Source: a virus. From it: a stretch of 35,406 nt of DNA. Positions 4,791 through 35,406 of this stretch are shown piece after piece; within the stretch, counting starts at the first letter, position 1; every line of letters starts with the position of its first letter. The notes beneath the pieces were generated by a model. That model had not been told where the DNA came from and did not search any database. It worked only from the letters and a program-made list of their open reading frames with translations. The translations under genes were made by a program, and so were the position numbers. The stretch covers positions 1 to 35,406 of IMG/VR virus record IMGVR_UViG_3300044941_000539; one strand, given 5' to 3'.

Positions 4791-5981
4791 TCATAGCGCT
4801 ACGAGCGTCAGCGCCCCCGGCGTCCCATAGCCCTCGCCCCAGTGGAGCATGCCGAAGGCGTCGGTGAGGGCGCCGTCGAGGCCGGGCGCCACGATGGTCA
4901 GCGGCGCGGCGGCGCTCCAGCTCACACCGTAGTTGTCGCTCGTCTTGACCTGGATCGCACCCACGCGTCGCACACCGGCGATGCGGGCCAGCAGCACGAC
5001 CAGATCGTTTTCGTAGAGGCTCTCGCCCCAGTCCCATGCGCGCGCGTCGAGGTAGGCGACCAGCGCGGCCTCGACGGCAGGCTTGATGCCGACCAACGTG
5101 TAACCCTGCTCCAACGCCAGCTCGATCTCGGACACCCAGATCAGGCGCACCGGATGCTGATAAGCACGCACCACCAGCCCCGGCGGCGCTTTGGAGGTCA
5201 GCGCCAGCTCCACGCGCTCCTTGAGCGCAGTGCTCGGCACTGCGTTGAGGTCTGCGGCGAGGAAACCCACCGCTGCGGCGCCGCCCCCCACCGTGATGGC
5301 GAGCGCGTCGGAGAGGTAGGTCGCGCCCAGCAGCTTCGCGCGCTCGACGCCCTCCACGCGCGCAGCCAGCTCGGCGCCGTCCTCCAGCGTGACGAACCGG
5401 TCGCCCAGATTGCGCAGCGCGGCGGGCGCGCGGGCAAGCGTCGCGTCTACCGTCTCGGCGTCCTGTCCACCTGAAGCGGCCGCCTCGTTGGTGACGCTGG
5501 CGATCCCCGCGATGGGCTGCGCGAGGAAGGTGAGTGTGTTGGCGGCGACGTTGCCCGCCGCGCCTGCGCTTATGGCGGTGGCCTCAACCTCGGCATCAGC
5601 GCCGTCCGGCGCAACGCTGACGCTTGTGTCGGTGGCGAACTCCTGCGCGTTGACACCGTATCCTGTGCGCACGCGTGTCCCCGCTGGCACAAGGATCGGG
5701 GCGAGCGTGCCAGCGGCGCTGGTGAACTTGAGCGTCGCGTGCGCGGGCGCGGCGACTTCGGGCGCGATGCCCACCAGGTTGAGCAGCGCGATCCACATGC
5801 GCTGCGGCAGCTGGTTCATCTTGTGGAGCAGCAGGCCGTAGAAGGCGCCGCAGCCCTCGACGATCTTGACCACGACGCTCGACGCGTTGCGATCCGACAG
5901 CTCTGGCGGCAGCGCGTCGAGGACATCTGCCACAACCTGCTCCTCGTCGCGTGTGTCCAGCTGGGGATACGGGATGGGCAT
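4791..5981 (-). CDS. Baseplate J-like protein (wedge, gp47-like)
   Basis: A 396-residue baseplate wedge protein of the P2 gpJ / Mu gp47 family. The helical N-terminus has MNQLPQRMWIALLNLVGI (residues 55-72). The J-like beta domain begins VPAGTRVRT (98-106), continues with an A-x-x-x-G-N-V segment (AGAAGNVAANTL, 139-150), IAGIASVTN (157-165) and ASGGQD (169-174); these are the family's hallmark motifs. It sits directly after the gp25-like gene (gap of three bases) and before the fibre. The same beta motif recurs in the connector gene at 14393-15085. Confidence 0.85.
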   Translation of the reverse strand: MPIPYPQLDTRDEEQVVADVLDALPPELSDRNASSVVVKIVEGCGAFYGLLLHKMNQLPQRMWIALLNLVGIAPEVAAPAHATLKFTSAAGTLAPILVPAGTRVRTGYGVNAQEFATDTSVSVAPDGADAEVEATAISAGAAGNVAANTLTFLAQPIAGIASVTNEAAASGGQDAETVDATLARAPAALRNLGDRFVTLEDGAELAARVEGVERAKLLGATYLSDALAITVGGGAAAVGFLAADLNAVPSTALKERVELALTSKAPPGLVVRAYQHPVRLIWVSEIELALEQGYTLVGIKPAVEAALVAYLDARAWDWGESLYENDLVVLLARIAGVRRVGAIQVKTSDNYGVSWSAAAPLTIVAPGLDGALTDAFGMLHWGEGYGTPGALTLVAL

Positions 5982-14392: not shown

Positions 14393-15085
14393 TCAGCGAC
14401 GCTCGAAGCGATGGAAGCCGTGCGCGCGCCGCTCACTCATGGAGGTGGCAGCGCCATCGCCATCGCGGTCTAGCGCCAGGCCGCCCGCGACCAGCCGCTT
14501 GACCTCATCCTTGTACATGCGCTGGTAGACCGCGCGCTTGTGGTCCCACGCATCGTCGCGCGTGCGCATCAGATCCATACACACCAGCTCCATCACGCGG
14601 TAGATGGCCGCGCGAGCGAGCTGGTGATCGGCGCCGCCAGTGGCGGGCGCGGGGTTGGTCACGCTGGCCACGCCTGCTATCTCCTGCTCCAACACCACCA
14701 GCCGTCCCGCCTCGACGTTATAAACCTCGCCCACATCCTCGGCCTGCGCCGCGACCTCGCCCACCTCACCAGCGCCCAATACCAGCGCGGCCTGCGTCAC
14801 AAACACAGTGTCGCCGTGCCTCTGCTCCTGTACGCTGCGTGTCCGCACCCGTGTTCCCGCCGCGAGCGTCGCGCCCGCTGGCCCCGCCACCACCCGCAGC
14901 AGCACCGCCGCCTGCGCGCTCGTGTCCACCAACTGCTCACCCTCGCTCCGGAAGTATCCATGCGCCGCCAGGTCGCGCCGCAGATCCTCGGCGGCGCGCA
15001 GGTGCTTGCGCGTGTAGTCCCGATCATCGTGCGCGAACAGCTGGGCGTCTTCTTCAGCCAGCTGCGCATCGTTGCTGTACTGCAT
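14393..15085 (-). CDS. Head-tail connector with an inserted baseplate-J-like beta domain
   Basis: A 230-residue protein. Residues 1-45 (QYSNDAQLAEEDAQLF, DRDYTRKHLRAAEDLRRDLAAHGY) and 155-210 (ARAAIYRVMELVCMDLMRT, YQRMYKDEVKRLVAGGLALDRDGDG) are helical and read like a gp6 / DUF1320-type connector. Between them, residues 62-153 are beta-rich and share AGTRVRT (76-82), IAGVASVTN (136-144) and GGAD (150-153) with the J protein at 4791-5981, at nearly the same spacing. It would sit on the portal. The ATG at 15085 has GGAG upstream; the open frame to 15196 crosses a hairpin and is ignored. Confidence 0.6.
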   Translation of the reverse strand: MQYSNDAQLAEEDAQLFAHDDRDYTRKHLRAAEDLRRDLAAHGYFRSEGEQLVDTSAQAAVLLRVVAGPAGATLAAGTRVRTRSVQEQRHGDTVFVTQAALVLGAGEVGEVAAQAEDVGEVYNVEAGRLVVLEQEIAGVASVTNPAPATGGADHQLARAAIYRVMELVCMDLMRTRDDAWDHKRAVYQRMYKDEVKRLVAGGLALDRDGDGAATSMSERRAHGFHRFERR

Positions 15086-15108
15086 GATGAGGCTCCAAGA
15101 AGCACAAG

Positions 15109-15128
15109 GCCCCGCTTGTGAGCGGGGC
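15109..15128 (-). terminator. Leftward terminator after the toxin/immunity-like pair
   Basis: An eight-pair GC-rich stem (15109-15116 with 15121-15128) around a four-base loop, followed leftward by CTTGTGCTTCTTG, a T-rich tail. It ends the AT-rich module and lies 24 bases before the start of the connector gene. The same 13-base tail is found at the hairpin at 3699-3731. Confidence 0.6.
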
Positions 15129-15162
15129 TCAGCGTTGAGGATGTTCTCTGAGGACTCTAATC

Positions 15163-15594
15163 TTATTTGTTGCCTTGCGAGATGTTCGCAAGCCACAGGC
15201 TTTTTTCTTGCTCGGTTGGGCGCTTGCCAGATCTCAAGTCGAGCCTTGGTAGATTAAACTTCGGGCGCCAGTATTTCTTGAGGTCTTTGATCTCCTCATG
15301 CTCAGGGTACAAGCCTGACACTTCACGAAATTGTATGGTGTTGTTGATGACCTCGAAGATCGCCCCCAAGTCCTCATCACTCTCGACAAGCGACTTTAGG
15401 GATTGATGAAAGTCATTAAGCTCGTTGAGCGCAAGAGACAGAGGCTTGGGAGATGGGCGCATGAACAACCATGACGATAACGTATGCCCGGCGCCAAGGG
15501 CCAGAGTCGGGGCATGAGCCCAGATCATCGGCATCGGTTCCTCGCTTCCCACCGCGATCAGTGCGGCCAGCTTCTCTTTTGTACGCTCGTTCAT
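15163..15594 (-). CDS. Candidate immunity protein for the MuF toxin domain
   Basis: A 143-residue protein whose ATG overlaps the stop of the MuF gene (ATGA, 15591-15594). It is AT-rich compared with the rest of the phage and uses A/T-ending codons, like the 3' part of the MuF gene, and the pair is closed by a terminator. The sequence is acidic and helical in the middle (LNELNDFHQSLKSLVESDEDLG) and has no recognised domain, membrane segment or helix-turn-helix. Structural operons of phages do not normally have a gene here, between the MuF protein and the connector. Immunity is inferred from position and composition only. Confidence 0.5.
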   Translation of the reverse strand: MNERTKEKLAALIAVGSEEPMPMIWAHAPTLALGAGHTLSSWLFMRPSPKPLSLALNELNDFHQSLKSLVESDEDLGAIFEVINNTIQFREVSGLYPEHEEIKDLKKYWRPKFNLPRLDLRSGKRPTEQEKSLWLANISQGNK

Positions 15595-16865
15595 TCTTCG
15601 CTACCTTCGTTCTTACGTTTCTTAAATCCGTAAAGCTCATCAACCTTCTTACGTAACTGAAAGTCGTCACTAAACTCCAAAGGCCAACCTCTATGTTTAC
15701 GGTATGCCTCCTCGGCCCGAAATGCAAAGTATTCTTGTTCTCGCCTATATTGTATTCCGGAAAATCTTTCTCTTTGGGTGTTCCAAAAATAACCATGAGC
15801 TACTTCATGTATCATAATCAAGAGTCGTTCTCTGCTGGTTATTCTTACGAGTGCGTTCTGGCCACTGGATACGCCATCCATTTTGCTGTTGAAGTCCAAA
15901 AATGCTTGTACGTCTTCAGGTTGTAAGTATTCGGCTTTAACATATTCATTGGCCAGAACTAAAATAGTCTCAGACCATTGATTGTCATCCAGGAGTAAAA
16001 GAACGATTTGTTCCCGCTGTACCATGTCAGCGAATTCATTATGGAGTTCATTGCCCAGACGAAGCAAGGCGATAGCAGACTCTTCGTCGGGTATCTCGAT
16101 GTCAACCCAGGGTCCGTCCACCTCATCGCGCTCACGAGACGCGACAAGCTGAGCGAGCGCATCATACGCCAGCGGCATCGCTCGCCAGTGGTGGCGGCAG
16201 CCCCACCCGCCGCAGCGAGTCATGACGTCGAGACCCTGCCCGTTGTCGAGCGCAGCGATCTCCTCGCGTGTGAAGGTCTTGCCCACCTTGTCGGCGCAGA
16301 ACGGGCGGTTTCGGCCATCCGAGGGGCCGAGGTAGATGAAGCGCTCTGCGCCCAGCTCCTTGGCCCGCGCTGCGTGGACCTCGCGGGCATGGAGCAGCGC
16401 CACCTCATGGAGCGCGCGGCCCACGCCACTGCGTGCGGCCGCCACTGCGCGCCGCGCGGCGTCGGCGAGGTCGGCGTCGCCGGTGAGCATCGCCTGCTGG
16501 AGCGGGTTGATGGCGCTGGCGATGTAATACGAGAGCGACTCGTTGAGCAGCCGTTGCGCACGCACACGCAGCGCTGCATCTCCTGCTGCACCTTCATCCC
16601 CGAGCAGCGCCCGCTCACCCGCGGCGACGCGATCGAGCAGGCGGTCCATCTGCGCGATGAGCCGAGGCAGCTCGGGGGGGCGCGGCGGGTTGCTTGCGTC
16701 CCCCTCGCCTACAAGCGCTGCCTCGGCCCGCTCGCGCCACTCATCGTGGATGGTGGCCCAGCGGGTCTTGAGCTCGTCGATACCCTGCGCGAGCAGCTCA
16801 TCCTGAGCGCGTGACCCCTCCACCAGCCGGGCGAGCTGCGCGGTCTGGGGAGGAGTGGTGGGCAT
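15591..16865 (-). CDS. MuF-type minor head protein fused to a C-terminal HEVAH metalloprotease-like toxin domain
   Basis: A 424-residue protein. Residues 1-245 are a MuF head morphogenesis protein: a helical first part, then RFIYLGPSDGRNRPFCADKVGKTFTREEI (about 175-203) and MTRCGGWGCRHHW (215-227), the typical Cys/His-rich MuF end. From about residue 255 the composition changes abruptly from GC-rich to AT-rich (around base 16090), and a new domain of about 165 residues starts. It contains LLIMIHEVAHGYFW, an HExxH zinc-protease motif at 353-357, then REQEYFAFRAEEAYRKHRGWP (about 375-395), which could supply a third metal ligand. MuF-linked polymorphic toxins are a known class; packed in the head, the domain could enter the host with DNA. 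The substrate is unknown. Confidence 0.75.
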   Translation of the reverse strand: MPTTPPQTAQLARLVEGSRAQDELLAQGIDELKTRWATIHDEWRERAEAALVGEGDASNPPRPPELPRLIAQMDRLLDRVAAGERALLGDEGAAGDAALRVRAQRLLNESLSYYIASAINPLQQAMLTGDADLADAARRAVAAARSGVGRALHEVALLHAREVHAARAKELGAERFIYLGPSDGRNRPFCADKVGKTFTREEIAALDNGQGLDVMTRCGGWGCRHHWRAMPLAYDALAQLVASRERDEVDGPWVDIEIPDEESAIALLRLGNELHNEFADMVQREQIVLLLLDDNQWSETILVLANEYVKAEYLQPEDVQAFLDFNSKMDGVSSGQNALVRITSRERLLIMIHEVAHGYFWNTQRERFSGIQYRREQEYFAFRAEEAYRKHRGWPLEFSDDFQLRKKVDELYGFKKRKNEGSEE

Positions 16866-17143: not shown

Positions 17144-18040
17144 TCAGCTCAGGACTTCGACCGCCAGGCGGTCCTCGTCCACGGCCTTGACGCCGTAGAG
17201 GCAGTCGATGACATGTTTGGTCTTAAGGTGATCCGAGTCCCACTGGCGCGTGTAGCGCAGCGCGATGTTCAGGTCTGGGTCCACCATCACGACGCCGATC
17301 GCGCCGCTCCCCTCCTCGGGCAGCGGCATCGGGCGCGTGACGAGCATGAACGCGTCGGGGTGCAGCGCGATGTTGTGCTGGGTGGCGCCCGTGGTGACGA
17401 CGAGCTGGCTCATCATCACATCGAAGCCATGCACGCGCCCGATGCTGCCCTCGCGCAGGGCCGCGCCGCCGTCGCCGCGCGCGTCGGCCCGCGTCATCTT
17501 GTCCAGCTCCAGCACATCGACCTCGGCAGCGGGCGACACCACCAGCAGCCGGTTCATCATCGGGCAGCGCAGCTCGTTGAGCTTCTTGCGCGCGGCGAGG
17601 ATGGCGGCCTCATCCAGCCCGGCGCCGCCGGTGCCGACCTGATTGGCGATCTCGGTGTAGAGGTTCATCAGCTTGGCCTCGATGGACTCAGCGAGCTTCA
17701 TCGCCGCGTCGCCCGCATAGTCCAGGCCCTGGCGGATCGCCTTGGCGCTGGTCACGTCCTCGGCGTGCCAGGCGACGTACTCATGCGTGTCCAGCACGAC
17801 CGCGATCTTGGTGTGGGCGGGCGAGTCCGGCGTGACCGCCGTGTTGGCCGCCTTCGTGCGCACCGTGAGCGCGCCCCGCTTGACGATGTTGACCGTGTCG
17901 CCCTGCTCGGCCACCGCCTCGTCGCCGTCGCGGCGCACGAAGCGCCCCAGCACGAGGTTGGCCTTGAGGTGGCCGATGGCCGTGGCGAGCCACAGCTTTG
18001 GGATCGCGTCGGCGGCCTCGGTGACAGTGATGTTCGCCAT
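17144..18040 (-). CDS. Major capsid protein, P22 coat-like
   Basis: A 298-residue protein after the scaffold gene. The start (ITVTEAADAIPKLWLATAIGHLKANLVLGRFVRRD), the D/E-loop-like part (GDTVNIVKRGALTVRTK), the DTHEYVAWHAEDVTSA helix, the MKLAESIEAKLMNLYTEIAN spine helix and the end (LRYTRQWDSDHLKTKHVIDCLYGVKAV) fit the P22-type coat family with an HK97 fold. GGAAGGAG precedes the ATG. It is the main shell subunit; four neighbours (portal, scaffold, MuF and connector) support the call. Confidence 0.85.
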   Translation of the reverse strand: MANITVTEAADAIPKLWLATAIGHLKANLVLGRFVRRDGDEAVAEQGDTVNIVKRGALTVRTKAANTAVTPDSPAHTKIAVVLDTHEYVAWHAEDVTSAKAIRQGLDYAGDAAMKLAESIEAKLMNLYTEIANQVGTGGAGLDEAAILAARKKLNELRCPMMNRLLVVSPAAEVDVLELDKMTRADARGDGGAALREGSIGRVHGFDVMMSQLVVTTGATQHNIALHPDAFMLVTRPMPLPEEGSGAIGVVMVDPDLNIALRYTRQWDSDHLKTKHVIDCLYGVKAVDEDRLAVEVLS

Positions 18041-18931: not shown

Positions 18932-20320
18932 TTAGAAGTCCGGCGTCGCCGGGGCCTCGGGCCGATTCATGAGGTCGTTGAGCAGCTCGTCGAGCCGCTC
19001 TGGGCTGACGCGGGAGCCGAGGTAGGCGCGCGTGATCGCTGCCCACGCCTCGCGGGTGACGAGGCCCGGGATCTTGAGGGACGCGAACTTCATCGCGTTG
19101 GCCAACTCGGCGTCGAGATCCTGCGGATCAAAGCTCGTCGGGTACTCCCGCGCGGACTCGCCCGTCTCGGTCATCCATGCGAGCGCCAGTCTATCCACTT
19201 GCGCTTCCAGGCGCGCCATCCGCTGGCCGAACTTCGAGAGCAGCGCGTCCTTATCCATCGTGATGTACGACAGCGCGACGCCGCTTGACACTACATGCCT
19301 CGTGTCCGAGTTGACGCGGCCAAGGCCGCTCAACAGGCGAATCTGCTCTTCAGTCTTCTCGATCTCGGTGCGGATCGCCGCGATCTGCCCCACATCTGGC
19401 GAGAGGTAGTAGGGCGTGTGTGTCGTCTCGTCGTGGAACGGCAGCGCGCCGCTCACCGACCAGTTGACCTGCTCCAGCGCGTCCCACGTCGAGCGCGGGA
19501 CGGCGAGGATCGAGAAGACGTGCTGGTAGATCTGCTCGTCGATGAGGCTGACGAGGTTGGTCAATCTACGGTTCATCGGCGCCAGATCGGTCAGCGCGCT
19601 GTCGCCAAGCGGCTCTACGCCCTTGCGCATCCCCCAGAACGCGAACGCCACCGGCACCTCACCGCATGGATGCTCGGCGCGGGCCACCTCCTGCGTGCTT
19701 GTGCCGTCCTCGCCCTTGCTCACCTCCAGCAGGCGCCAGTCGGTGCGCGTCCAGACCCTCACGCGCTCGGCGGCAGGGGCGCTCGACGCGGCGCTCATTG
19801 GCTCGCGTGTCTCCTCGACGCGCTCGCGGATCGCCACCCAGACGAGCTGACCGCGCCGGTCCACGCGCCAGTCAAGGACGTCCTCGGTGTCCACAATGTA
19901 GGCGTAGGGCCTGCGCCCCGCAGCGCGCTCCTGCGCCCGCGTCAGCGCCTGGCCGCCATCCGGATCGAGCCTGTCCACCACGACCGCCACGCGGCCGCCG
20001 CGCTGCACCAGCTGGGCTGCGCGCTCGTAGAACTCGTCGGCGGGTGTGCCCAGCAGATCCATGTCCGCCCACAGCTCATCAAGGGTCGAGGTCGAGCTGG
20101 TGCGGGGAATTTTCTGCCGGTAGAGGTGCGCCGCGTAGGTGTCGATGACCGCGCGAGCGTGGTTGGGGTGGACCGCGCGCTTGAGCCGCGCCGCGAAGTC
20201 CACCGGACGCTCTTTTGTATGCCGGGCGAGGTAATTCGCGAGGTAGACTGGGCCGCCCTCGTAACACAGACGGTACTCGGTCCACTGGTCGAGCTGCTGG
20301 GTGTAGAGAGGGTGGGGCAT
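18932..20320 (-). CDS. Portal protein
   Basis: A 462-residue protein of the SPP1 gp6-like portal type. Recognisable parts are an N-terminal WTEYRLCYEGGPVYLANYLARHTKE, RAVIDTYAAHLYRQKIP, the clip-and-wing part (YAYIVDTEDVLDWRVDRRGQLVWV), DLAPMNRRLTNLVSLIDEQIYQHVFSILAVP, and a C-terminal helical stem/crown (KTEEQIRLLSGLG, LLSKFGQRMARLEAQVDRLALAWM). It forms the 12-fold ring through which the terminase packs DNA. It starts five bases after the terminase stop. Confidence 0.85.
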   Translation of the reverse strand: MPHPLYTQQLDQWTEYRLCYEGGPVYLANYLARHTKERPVDFAARLKRAVHPNHARAVIDTYAAHLYRQKIPRTSSTSTLDELWADMDLLGTPADEFYERAAQLVQRGGRVAVVVDRLDPDGGQALTRAQERAAGRRPYAYIVDTEDVLDWRVDRRGQLVWVAIRERVEETREPMSAASSAPAAERVRVWTRTDWRLLEVSKGEDGTSTQEVARAEHPCGEVPVAFAFWGMRKGVEPLGDSALTDLAPMNRRLTNLVSLIDEQIYQHVFSILAVPRSTWDALEQVNWSVSGALPFHDETTHTPYYLSPDVGQIAAIRTEIEKTEEQIRLLSGLGRVNSDTRHVVSSGVALSYITMDKDALLSKFGQRMARLEAQVDRLALAWMTETGESAREYPTSFDPQDLDAELANAMKFASLKIPGLVTREAWAAITRAYLGSRVSPERLDELLNDLMNRPEAPATPDF

Positions 20321-33999: not shown

Positions 34000-34511
34000 T
34001 GGTGGCGCTCCCCAAGCTCTACACCGTCGCGGAGGTGGCCGTCTATCTGGGGCTAAAGGAGTGCGAGGTGGTGCGCCTCGTCAAGCGGGGCGAGCTGCCC
34101 TGCCTGCGGCTGACCGCACGCTCGGCGTCCTGGAAGATCACCGACGCGGCGATCCTCGCCTACCTCGACAAGATGGGGGCGCTCCCTCAGAATAGCGGCC
34201 GGTCAGACCTGGCAAGCGATGACCAGCAGGCTTCTACAACACACGGAGAAGTCATCGATGAGCAAACAACAAGAGATGGAGCTGCTCGACACGGGGATCT
34301 ATCGCCTCGCCAACGGGCAGCACAAGATCGACACGACGGCGCTCGACCTGCGCACCGGCAAGATGCGCCGCGCGCGCAAGACGTGTCCGGCGGAGTGGTC
34401 GTTGACGCAGCTGCGCGCGACGCGGGATCAGATGCAGGCCGAGCTGCGCGGCGCGCTCCCCGAGGCACCGCCGAGGCTCACGCTCGGCGCATACGCGGAG
34501 GCGTGGATTGA
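33999..34511 (+). CDS. Excisionase / MerR-like helix-turn-helix protein
   Basis: The N-terminal 60 residues, LYTVAEVAVYLGLKECEVVRLVKRGELPCLRL ... WKITDAAILAYLDKMG, are a winged excisionase-type helix-turn-helix. It directly precedes the integrase and may direct excision. The frame is open for 170 residues but everything after about residue 87 overlaps the integrase gene (34258-34511) and reads as Ala/Arg-rich; the functional protein may be only about 85 residues with an incidental extension in this stop-poor DNA. Confidence 0.6.
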   Translation: MVALPKLYTVAEVAVYLGLKECEVVRLVKRGELPCLRLTARSASWKITDAAILAYLDKMGALPQNSGRSDLASDDQQASTTHGEVIDEQTTRDGAARHGDLSPRQRAAQDRHDGARPAHRQDAPRAQDVSGGVVVDAAARDAGSDAGRAARRAPRGTAEAHARRIRGGVD

Positions 34512-35406
34512 TCGGCGCTCGGCGCGCCTGTCACCCGCTGCCGAGCGCAGCTACCGCGTCGCGCTGGCGGTGGGCATCGTCCCGCAGCTCGGCGATCTGT
34601 ACTGCGACGCGATCCGGCGCAGCGACGTCGAGGAGTGGGTGGCCGCGATCGAGCAGGCCAGCTACGAGCGCGGCGACGAGGAGATCCCCTACGCGCAGGA
34701 CACGCTGCGGCGCTGGCATCGCGTCTTGGTGACGCTGTGCGGCGACATGGCGGCGGATCTGGGGATCGACGATCCGACCCGGCGCATCACCCCTCCGCGC
34801 AGCCTGCGGCGCCGCGTGCGCGAGACGCAGACGCTTTCGCGCGATGAGCTTGGGCGGCTGGTCGAGGCCGCCAAAGACACGGATCGCTACGCCGAGATCG
34901 TGACGCTGGCGTATACCGGGATGCGCTCGGGCGAGCTGTGGGCGCTGCGCTGGACGGACCTGGACGGGGAGATGATCCATGTCCGGCGCACAGTCAGCGA
35001 GGGCGTCATCCGCGACTGCACGAAGACGGGCTGGGAGCGGGAGGTGTGGGCGCCGGAGATCGTGCGCGACGCGCTGCACACCTGGCGTCAGGAGCTGCTG
35101 CGCGCGCAGGATCGGCGGCTGGCGAGCGAGCTGGTCTTCCCCTCGCTCCAGCTCACGCCGCGCACCTGCGGCTCGATCCGCAAGGCGATGGACGCGGCCG
35201 CCGCGCAGGCCAAGATCACGCAGCACGTCAGCCCGCAGGTGCTGCGGCGCACGTTCAACACGCTGATGATCGCGGCGGGCGTCAACGAGATCGTGCTGCG
35301 CAGCCAGATGGGCCACAGCGATCAGCCCATGACGGCGCGTTATGCGGGCGTGCGCGTGGAGAGCAAGCGCGCCGCGTGGGAGAGTTCGTTCTTACGAGGA
35401 GGGTAG
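34258..35406 (+). CDS. int: Tyrosine recombinase integrase
   Basis: A 382-residue site-specific recombinase that would insert the phage into the host chromosome. The N-terminal half holds the arm- and core-binding parts (LTLGAYAEAWIDRRSARLSP, about 75-92). The catalytic set is Arg223 (TGMRSGEL), Lys256 (CTKTGWERE), Arg330 (VSPQVLRRTF), His353 (MGHSDQPMT) and Tyr362 (RYAGV). The usual first His of the HxxR box is Gln327. ATG 34258 has GGAG upstream and is preferred over 34219. The stop is the window edge, so attP, if downstream, is not included. Confidence 0.9.
   Translation: MSKQQEMELLDTGIYRLANGQHKIDTTALDLRTGKMRRARKTCPAEWSLTQLRATRDQMQAELRGALPEAPPRLTLGAYAEAWIDRRSARLSPAAERSYRVALAVGIVPQLGDLYCDAIRRSDVEEWVAAIEQASYERGDEEIPYAQDTLRRWHRVLVTLCGDMAADLGIDDPTRRITPPRSLRRRVRETQTLSRDELGRLVEAAKDTDRYAEIVTLAYTGMRSGELWALRWTDLDGEMIHVRRTVSEGVIRDCTKTGWEREVWAPEIVRDALHTWRQELLRAQDRRLASELVFPSLQLTPRTCGSIRKAMDAAAAQAKITQHVSPQVLRRTFNTLMIAAGVNEIVLRSQMGHSDQPMTARYAGVRVESKRAAWESSFLRGG

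What the first reader, a model, noticed from the sequence alone, without database searches (positions are those of the whole stretch)
15163..16865. Phage head protein carrying a metalloprotease-like toxin domain, with a probable immunity gene
Seen: a MuF head protein changes abruptly at about base 16090 from GC-rich to AT-rich DNA; the new C-terminal domain holds HEVAH (residues 353-357) and is followed by an ATGA-overlapping, equally AT-rich gene of unknown type, then a terminator. Established: MuF-linked polymorphic toxins with downstream immunity genes are a known prophage class. Inference: this is a toxin-immunity pair whose toxin is a zinc protease (M91/NleD-like order HExxH ... acidic/aromatic ... 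YRxHRGWP) loaded in the capsid and ejected with DNA or used between competitors. A metalloprotease in this position with this partner may be new.
Basis: partly seen in the sequence, partly recalled or inferred. Interest (0 to 1): 0.85.

Follow-up and report, generated by a model that had tools for sequence, protein, structure and literature searches.

The report
Phage head protein with protease-like toxin
A probably temperate phage's minor head protein carries an extra, foreign-looking end with a zinc-protease signature, followed by a small partner gene; it looks like a little-studied but already described kind of phage-carried toxin with its antidote.

Summary
The MuF-type head gene (16865-15591, minus strand) changes from 70% to 42% GC, with the best change point at base 16106. 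It carries a C-terminal domain with HEVAH at residues 353-357 and overlaps a 143-aa gene by ATGA. The domain is not a normal part of this head protein. The 107 whole relatives found in 119 stretches of a capped scan end 6-64 residues after the MuF CRH motif, against 199 here. A sister phage, 57-92% identical in the ten other genes compared and 51% in the MuF N-terminus, carries in this slot another AT-richer domain, HELTH, and an unlike small gene. A third phage has a CdiA_C toxin domain there. Both HExxH sites fit the zinc-protease signature (recalled PS00142), which 10 and 5 of 50,000 shuffles do. No profile or PDB sequence match was significant; fold prediction was too poor to use. Most likely this is a MuF polymorphic toxin with a zinc-peptidase tip and an immunity gene. 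Jamet et al. 2017 report metallopeptidase domains in 20% of 191 MuF toxins: a known class, with a domain and partner that look new. M91/NleD membership and the terminator are not supported.

The parts
15591..16865 (-). MuF-type minor head protein with C-terminal extension, 424 aa
   Evidence: ORF; weak sub-threshold Phage_Mu_F / Phage_min_cap2 / SPP1 gp7 matches; 51% identical N-terminus in the sister phage; 107 of 107 whole relatives match the N-terminus at E<=1e-3
16176..16865 (-). MuF N-terminal part (residues 1-230), near whose end the relatives stop; holds GPSDGRNRPFC and CGGWGCRHHW
   Evidence: BLAST similarity to the sister protein's N-terminal part ends at residue 230; relatives end 6-64 aa after CR[HC]
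15594..16175 (-). C-terminal extension (residues 231-424), candidate zinc-peptidase toxin domain
   Evidence: GC 0.425 for residues 255-424, change point 16106; absent from 107 of 107 whole relatives
15789..15818 (-). IMIHEVAHGY (residues 350-359), zinc-protease signature with HExxH
   Evidence: PS00142 (recalled) match; 10 of 50,000 shuffles; only one of 346 frames in the window
15732..15740 (-). E376/E378 in REQEYFAFRAEE, candidate third zinc ligand (inferred)
   Evidence: Aligns with DEEVTAHQMED of the sister domain and with EKEFQAE of an ArdC-type metallopeptidase
15163..15594 (-). Candidate immunity gene, 143 aa, ATGA overlap with the toxin gene
   Evidence: junction and AAGG upstream; GC 0.523; no significant family match
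15109..15128 (-). Hairpin (8 stem pairs) after the candidate immunity gene; terminator function doubtful
17144..18040 (-). P22-like coat protein (context)
   Evidence: PF11651, E=6.8e-21, above cut-off; 92% identical in the sister phage
14393..15085 (-). Next gene, Baseplate_J-like (context; marks the far edge of the variable module)
   Evidence: PF04865 above cut-off (on the longer ORF 14393-15196); 74% identical in the sister phage
34219..35406 (+). Tyrosine integrase, suggests a temperate phage (context)
   Evidence: PF00589 above cut-off

Best explanation
This is a MuF polymorphic toxin module of a probably temperate phage. Shown: a minor head protein that in the relatives examined ends shortly after the CRH motif has gained a foreign, AT-rich domain with a zinc-protease signature, coupled by ATGA to a small gene. 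In a sister phage the slot holds another, at most distantly related domain and an unlike small gene. Inferred: the MuF part carries the domain into the capsid and it enters the cell with the DNA. There a zinc ion, held by H353, H357 and probably E376 or E378, with E354 as base, lets it cut a host protein. The 143-aa protein, made in the lysogen and in the producing cell, binds and blocks it, so only cells without the prophage suffer.
For: Extension absent from 107 of 107 whole MuF relatives taken by an N-terminal motif (tails 6-64 aa; 199 here and 214 in the sister). Module-limited difference between two phages whose ten other compared genes are 57-92% identical. CdiA_C toxin domain above the Pfam cut-off in the same slot in L014. 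Zinc-protease signature in both phages' domains, 10 and 5 of 50,000 shuffles. GC drop in both phages. Overlapping downstream gene under 150 aa, whereas 12 of 95 assessable short MuF genes are followed only by ORFs under 150 aa; in line with 89.4% versus 25.5% in Jamet et al.. Integrase above cut-off in both phages.
Against: No profile library matches the domain or the partner significantly. Structure models were too poor to show a zincin fold (mean pLDDT 47.8 and 48.7); searches with them gave no significant match. MuF profiles match only below their cut-offs. No convincing homologue of the domain or partner was found outside the record, apart from the probable distant likeness of the sister domain, so neither has been seen with another delivery system. 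Toxicity, encapsidation and neutralisation are untested.
Confidence: 0.72

Rival explanations
1. An injected zinc protease that serves the phage rather than kills: an ArdC/ImmA-like peptidase that enters with the DNA and cuts a repressor, a defence protein or itself early in infection; the 143-aa protein is a modulator or unrelated cargo.
For: The only plasmid hit of the domain is an ArdC-type protein (ArdcN plus Peptidase_M78) aligned across HExxH and the glutamate region, better than all 5,000 shuffles that keep the motif. Jamet et al. suggest that mildly toxic peptidases could steer lysis or lysogeny (passage). Zincins are the commonest domain of polyvalent proteins of phages and conjugative elements (passages).
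Against: That hit is E=2 in its search and was picked as the best of 72,556 records, so the shuffle test is biased. The sister domain shows no such likeness (1,184 of 5,000 shuffles score as high). No Pfam M78 match. The coupled partner gene, different in the sister, fits immunity better.
Confidence: 0.14
2. A capsid maturation or self-processing protease: the domain cuts MuF or the scaffold during head assembly.
For: The phage has a P22-like coat and a weak scaffold match; self-processing zincins are proposed for polyvalent and PVC-type proteins (passages).
Against: 107 of 107 whole MuF relatives lack it. The sister keeps 65-92% identity in scaffold and coat while the domain has no tblastn match at E<=0.01. 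A maturation protease would not be expected to differ so much in composition from its neighbours.
Confidence: 0.07
3. A non-catalytic decoration or DNA-binding extension that happens to contain HExxH; the downstream gene is an unrelated insertion.
For: No zincin fold was predicted (poor models); no significant family match.
Against: The full signature occurs in both phages' domains at 10 and 5 of 50,000 shuffles although the rest has diverged to about 25% identity.
Confidence: 0.07

Closest known systems
MuF polymorphic toxins of temperate phages (Jamet et al. 2017, PMC5576092; section 7 read, other passages by word search)
   Same: MuF-type N-terminus in the head module, C-terminal extension, small downstream gene, temperate phage; 20% of their 191 MuF toxins carry a metallopeptidase domain
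   Different: The domain here matches no toxin domain in the libraries searched; the MuF part matches MuF profiles only below the cut-off; partner of unknown family
Bxa of Bacteroides stercoris and Apk2 (PMC11699363, PMC12226406; passages by word search)
   Same: MuF fusion with a toxic C-terminal domain neutralised by adjacent genes
   Different: Those are an ADP-ribosyltransferase and a (p)ppApp synthetase; here a predicted protease
Tox-MPTase1-5 and other zincin toxin domains of polymorphic toxins (Zhang et al. 2012, PMC3482391; passages by word search)
   Same: HExxH zincin-type toxin tips
   Different: None of them was among the Pfam matches of the window domain at E<=10; the passages seen list Tox-MPTase1-5 with RHS, T2SS, T6SS, T7SS, PVC or TcdB/TcaC, not MuF
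ArdC / Peptidase_M78 (ImmA/IrrE) peptidases of mobile elements
   Same: Weak pairwise alignment over HExxH and the following glutamate region
   Different: No M78 or ArdcN profile match in the window domain; the hit lies in a plasmid near a relaxase gene, not in a head protein

Membership tests
MuF polymorphic toxin | N-terminal MuF domain | tested here: inconclusive
   PF04233 13.7-15.9 bits against a cut-off of 29.6; TIGR01641 13.0 bits, and 19.9 in the sister, against 39.65; conserved GP..R.RPFC and CRH motifs; 107 of 107 relatives aligned, themselves chosen by the first motif
MuF polymorphic toxin | Encoded in the head/packaging module | tested here: met
   Terminase (phrog_979, PF17289), ORF in portal position (only a sub-threshold DUF2802 match), sub-threshold scaffold match, P22-like coat, then this gene, on one strand
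MuF polymorphic toxin | C-terminal extension that varies while the N-terminus is kept | tested here: met
   199 and 214 aa tails in two phages, 6-64 in 107 relatives; tails of the two about 25% alike; CdiA_C in L014
MuF polymorphic toxin | Extension is a recognised toxin domain | tested here: inconclusive
   No significant profile match for the window domain; only the zinc-protease signature
MuF polymorphic toxin | Small gene (<150 aa) directly downstream | tested here: met
   143 aa, ATGA overlap
MuF polymorphic toxin | Temperate phage | tested here: met
   Integrase above cut-off in window and sister; lysogeny itself not shown
MuF polymorphic toxin | Toxicity neutralised by the partner | not testable with these tools
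   Needs expression tests
Zincin metallopeptidase | HExxH in a zinc-protease signature | tested here: met
   IMIHEVAHGY; 10 of 50,000 shuffles (pattern recalled)
Zincin metallopeptidase | Third zinc ligand downstream | tested here: inconclusive
   E376/E378 align with the sister and with an ArdC-type peptidase
Zincin metallopeptidase | Zincin fold | tested here: inconclusive
   Mean pLDDT 47.8 (window) and 48.7 (sister); no significant fold match
Peptidase M91 (NleD-like) | Match to the family profile | tested here: not met
   Not among Pfam matches at E<=10 for the protein, the domain or its core; HMMER filters may drop weak matches
Peptidase_M78 / ArdC | Match to the family profile | tested here: not met
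   No M78 match for window or sister domain at E<=10, only a pairwise hit

The most novel reading that the evidence does not exclude
The two phages reveal a fast-evolving, undescribed family of capsid-carried zinc proteases, each with its own unrelated immunity protein. They may be related to ArdC/ImmA-type peptidases and act on a defence or regulatory protein of the newly infected cell.
Probability: 0.15. Interest if true: 0.72.

Novelty: new member of a known kind. Interest (0 to 1): 0.42.

Why it matters
No experimentally tested proteolytic MuF toxin appeared in the listings and passages I saw (searches; searches returned no paper); the characterised ones seen were Apk2 and Bxa. This pair, with a sister pair differing in both domain and partner, is a compact test case for whether phages carry proteases in the capsid to harm or steer non-lysogens, and for how immunity proteins follow a diverging toxin.

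Tried and rejected
Searches with no relative or only weak hits: domain and partner in viral contigs; MuF N-terminal alignment and coat protein in genome contigs; whole head protein (E<=0.01) and partner (E<=0.1) in phages; domain in plasmids and phages (best E=2 and 5); partner in plasmids (best E=0.1, a DUF6012 protein over 42 residues); sister domain in plasmids (E=2) and in viral contigs (found only its own contig); PDB sequences (best E=1.3 and 1); PADLOC. Genome-wide tests in bacterial hosts were not possible, as the record is a virus without known host.

Zincin by structure: two AlphaFold runs with two-row alignments gave mean pLDDT 47.8 and 48.7. Foldseek in PDB and in BFVD (window model only) gave no match at E<=0.001; VIA-align on the sister model gave no Z of 8 or more. 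Among the 50 BFVD rows shown of 68, a phage IrrE N-terminal-like protein ranks 7th (E=1.8, TM 0.21) and a 'minor capsid protein 2' 2nd (E=0.92, TM 0.27). I recognised no zincin in the PDB rows. I treat all this as no evidence either way.

Are the two phages' domains related? Local alignment score reached in 4 of 2,000 shuffles; semi-global 0 of 2,000; semi-global with HExxH masked 21 of 2,000; local with the motif kept in place 25 of 5,000; BLASTP E=0.014. So likely but not proven. The two partner genes show no likeness (1,133 of 2,000 shuffles score as high).

A DNA pattern for HE.AH..FWN found six contigs with small phage metallopeptidase-like proteins. The two scanned against Pfam match SprT-like and M78 below cut-off. 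They were chosen by the motif, so their likeness to the domain proves nothing, and I dropped them.

Loci L004-L012, with coats 24-45% identical to the window's, show no HExxH in the plus-strand ORFs of 70 aa or more within 4.5 kb after the coat. I did not search them for MuF, and some end too early to tell.

Full report
What is there. The window is a 35.4 kb virus record (IMG/VR class given there) of a phage that looks contractile-tailed: P22-like coat (PF11651, E=6.8e-21), sheath (PF04984, 31.3 bits, just under its cut-off of 31.4), Baseplate_J proteins, terminase and an integrase above the Pfam cut-off, so probably temperate. On the minus strand, after terminase, an ORF in portal position (18932-20320, only a sub-threshold DUF2802 match), a sub-threshold scaffold match, the coat and a small DUF7302-like gene (also sub-threshold), comes a 424-aa minor head protein (16865-15591). 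A 143-aa gene follows, overlapping it by ATGA.

Composition. GC is 0.705 for residues 1-254 of the head protein, 0.425 for residues 255-424 and 0.523 for the 143-aa gene. The record as a whole is 0.679, and the lowest of 1,114 overlapping 510-bp windows outside the module is 0.539. The best change point within the gene is base 16106. The sister phage shows the same dip: 0.606, 0.496, 0.564, against 0.602 for its 16.7 kb stretch; the dip there is weaker, since the lowest of 483 620-bp windows outside is 0.531.

Is the domain a normal part of the head protein? Of the 119, 107 hold a whole protein with a CR[HC] motif within 90 residues. Seven lack that motif, three are cut by the contig end, and two do not show the first motif in a frame; these 12 were dropped. 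The 107 (95 distinct sequences) all match the window's MuF residues 1-230 at E<=1e-3, and none matches either phage's C-terminal domain. They end 6-64 residues after CR[HC], median 12. The window's tail is 199 and the sister's 214. Of 95 short MuF genes with enough flank, 12 are followed only by ORFs under 150 aa.

The sister phage. One contig, IMGVR_UViG_3300025018_000023, holds the same gene order. Identities are terminase 62%, portal-position gene 79%, scaffold 65%, coat 92%, DUF7302-like 57%, MuF residues 1-230 51%, then no match at E<=0.01 for residues 255-424 and the 143-aa gene, then next gene 74%, 59%, 69%, sheath 81% and tube-position gene 76%. In the gap lie another C-terminal domain with HELTH at 346-350 and an overlapping 116-aa gene. 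The two small genes show no likeness. The two domains are probably distant relatives: semi-global score 0 of 2,000 shuffles, 21 of 2,000 with HExxH masked, 25 of 5,000 with the motif kept in place, MAFFT identity 25%. So this is either a deeply diverged toxin family or exchange within one.

A third occupant. A DNA pattern for CGGWGCRH.W found two contigs besides the window: the sister and L014. In L014, a MuF protein sharing the anchor GP...RPFC...CGGWGCRH.W (45% over 53 residues, E=8e-16 pairwise; profile probability 98%) carries Pfam CdiA_C at 32.8 bits, above its cut-off of 26.6. CdiA_C is the C-terminal domain of contact-dependent growth inhibition proteins by its Pfam description. The contig ends with that gene's stop codon, so a following gene cannot be seen.

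Is it a zinc protease? Both domains match the zinc-protease signature PS00142 (recalled, not from a database). Shuffles match in 10 and 5 of 50,000. In the window 1 of 346 frames matches, and in the sister stretch 1 of 127. A glutamate-rich stretch follows (window REQEYFAFRAEE, sister DEEVTAHQMED). The only plasmid hit, E=2, is an ArdC-type protein with Peptidase_M78, aligned over both elements. It is the best of a large search, and the sister domain does not share the likeness. Pfam, PHROGs, NCBIfam, PADLOC and PDB sequences give nothing significant for the domain or partner. The only Pfam hit of the window core segment is DUF3267, 'putative zincin peptidase', E=0.31; those of the sister core are DUF5003 (E=0.016) and 'putative aminopeptidase' (E=0.036), all below cut-off and not evidence by themselves. 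Structure prediction was poor, probably for lack of relatives, so the fold is open.

How it most likely works. Shown: modular fusion to a head protein, a different occupant in the sister, zinc-protease signature, coupled small gene, integrase. Inferred: packaging through the MuF part, entry with DNA, proteolysis of a host protein, and neutralisation by the small gene product in lysogens and producing cells. The weakest steps are the proteolytic activity and the immunity role.

What is known. Jamet et al. 2017 (PMC5576092, section 7 read; other passages by word search) define MuF toxins: 191 of 1,515 MuF proteins, 20% of the 191 with a metallopeptidase domain, and 89.4% followed by a small ORF under 150 aa against 25.5% for short MuF. 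Zhang et al. 2012 (PMC3482391, passages) list zincin toxin domains. Bxa and Apk2 (PMC11699363, PMC12226406, passages) are MuF toxins shown to be toxic and neutralised by neighbours. I saw no paper on an experimentally tested proteolytic MuF toxin in the listings of searches, and searches returned none; supplements and most subscription papers were not searched. The finding is thus a new member of a known kind. What looks new is the domain family and its partner, unmatched in the libraries searched.

Noticed in passing
L014:8350-9426: MuF-type protein of a phage contig with a CdiA_C toxin domain (32.8 bits, cut-off 26.6); an upstream ORF (4816-5703) looks to me like a MuB-type ATPase of transposable phages, by eye only.
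   Followed up: partly
L002:7334-7732: The sister phage has an extra 132-aa ORF between coat and the DUF7302-like gene, for which the window has no room (about 90 bases).
   Followed up: no
window 15109-15128: A GC-rich hairpin lies between the 143-aa gene and the next gene; the sister phage has only 6 bases there.
   Followed up: partly
L101: MuF relative with the longest other tail among the 107 (64 aa, Lys/Pro-rich), overlapped by 4 bases by a 136-aa ORF; a possible shortened or different module.
   Followed up: no
L017:4616-4921, L018:4491-4805, L019:7332-7631, L020:3436-3864, L021:4231-4545, L022:2271-2606: Small stand-alone phage proteins (99-142 aa) with HE.AHAFFWN; the two scanned (L017, L020) match SprT-like and M78 profiles below cut-off.
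   Followed up: partly
L005:6875-7378, L006:5243-5590, L007:1134-1613: Phages with related coats (34-41% identical) carry, right after the coat, a small ORF with a hydrophobic, signal-like N-terminus (by eye), odd for a head-module gene.
   Followed up: no
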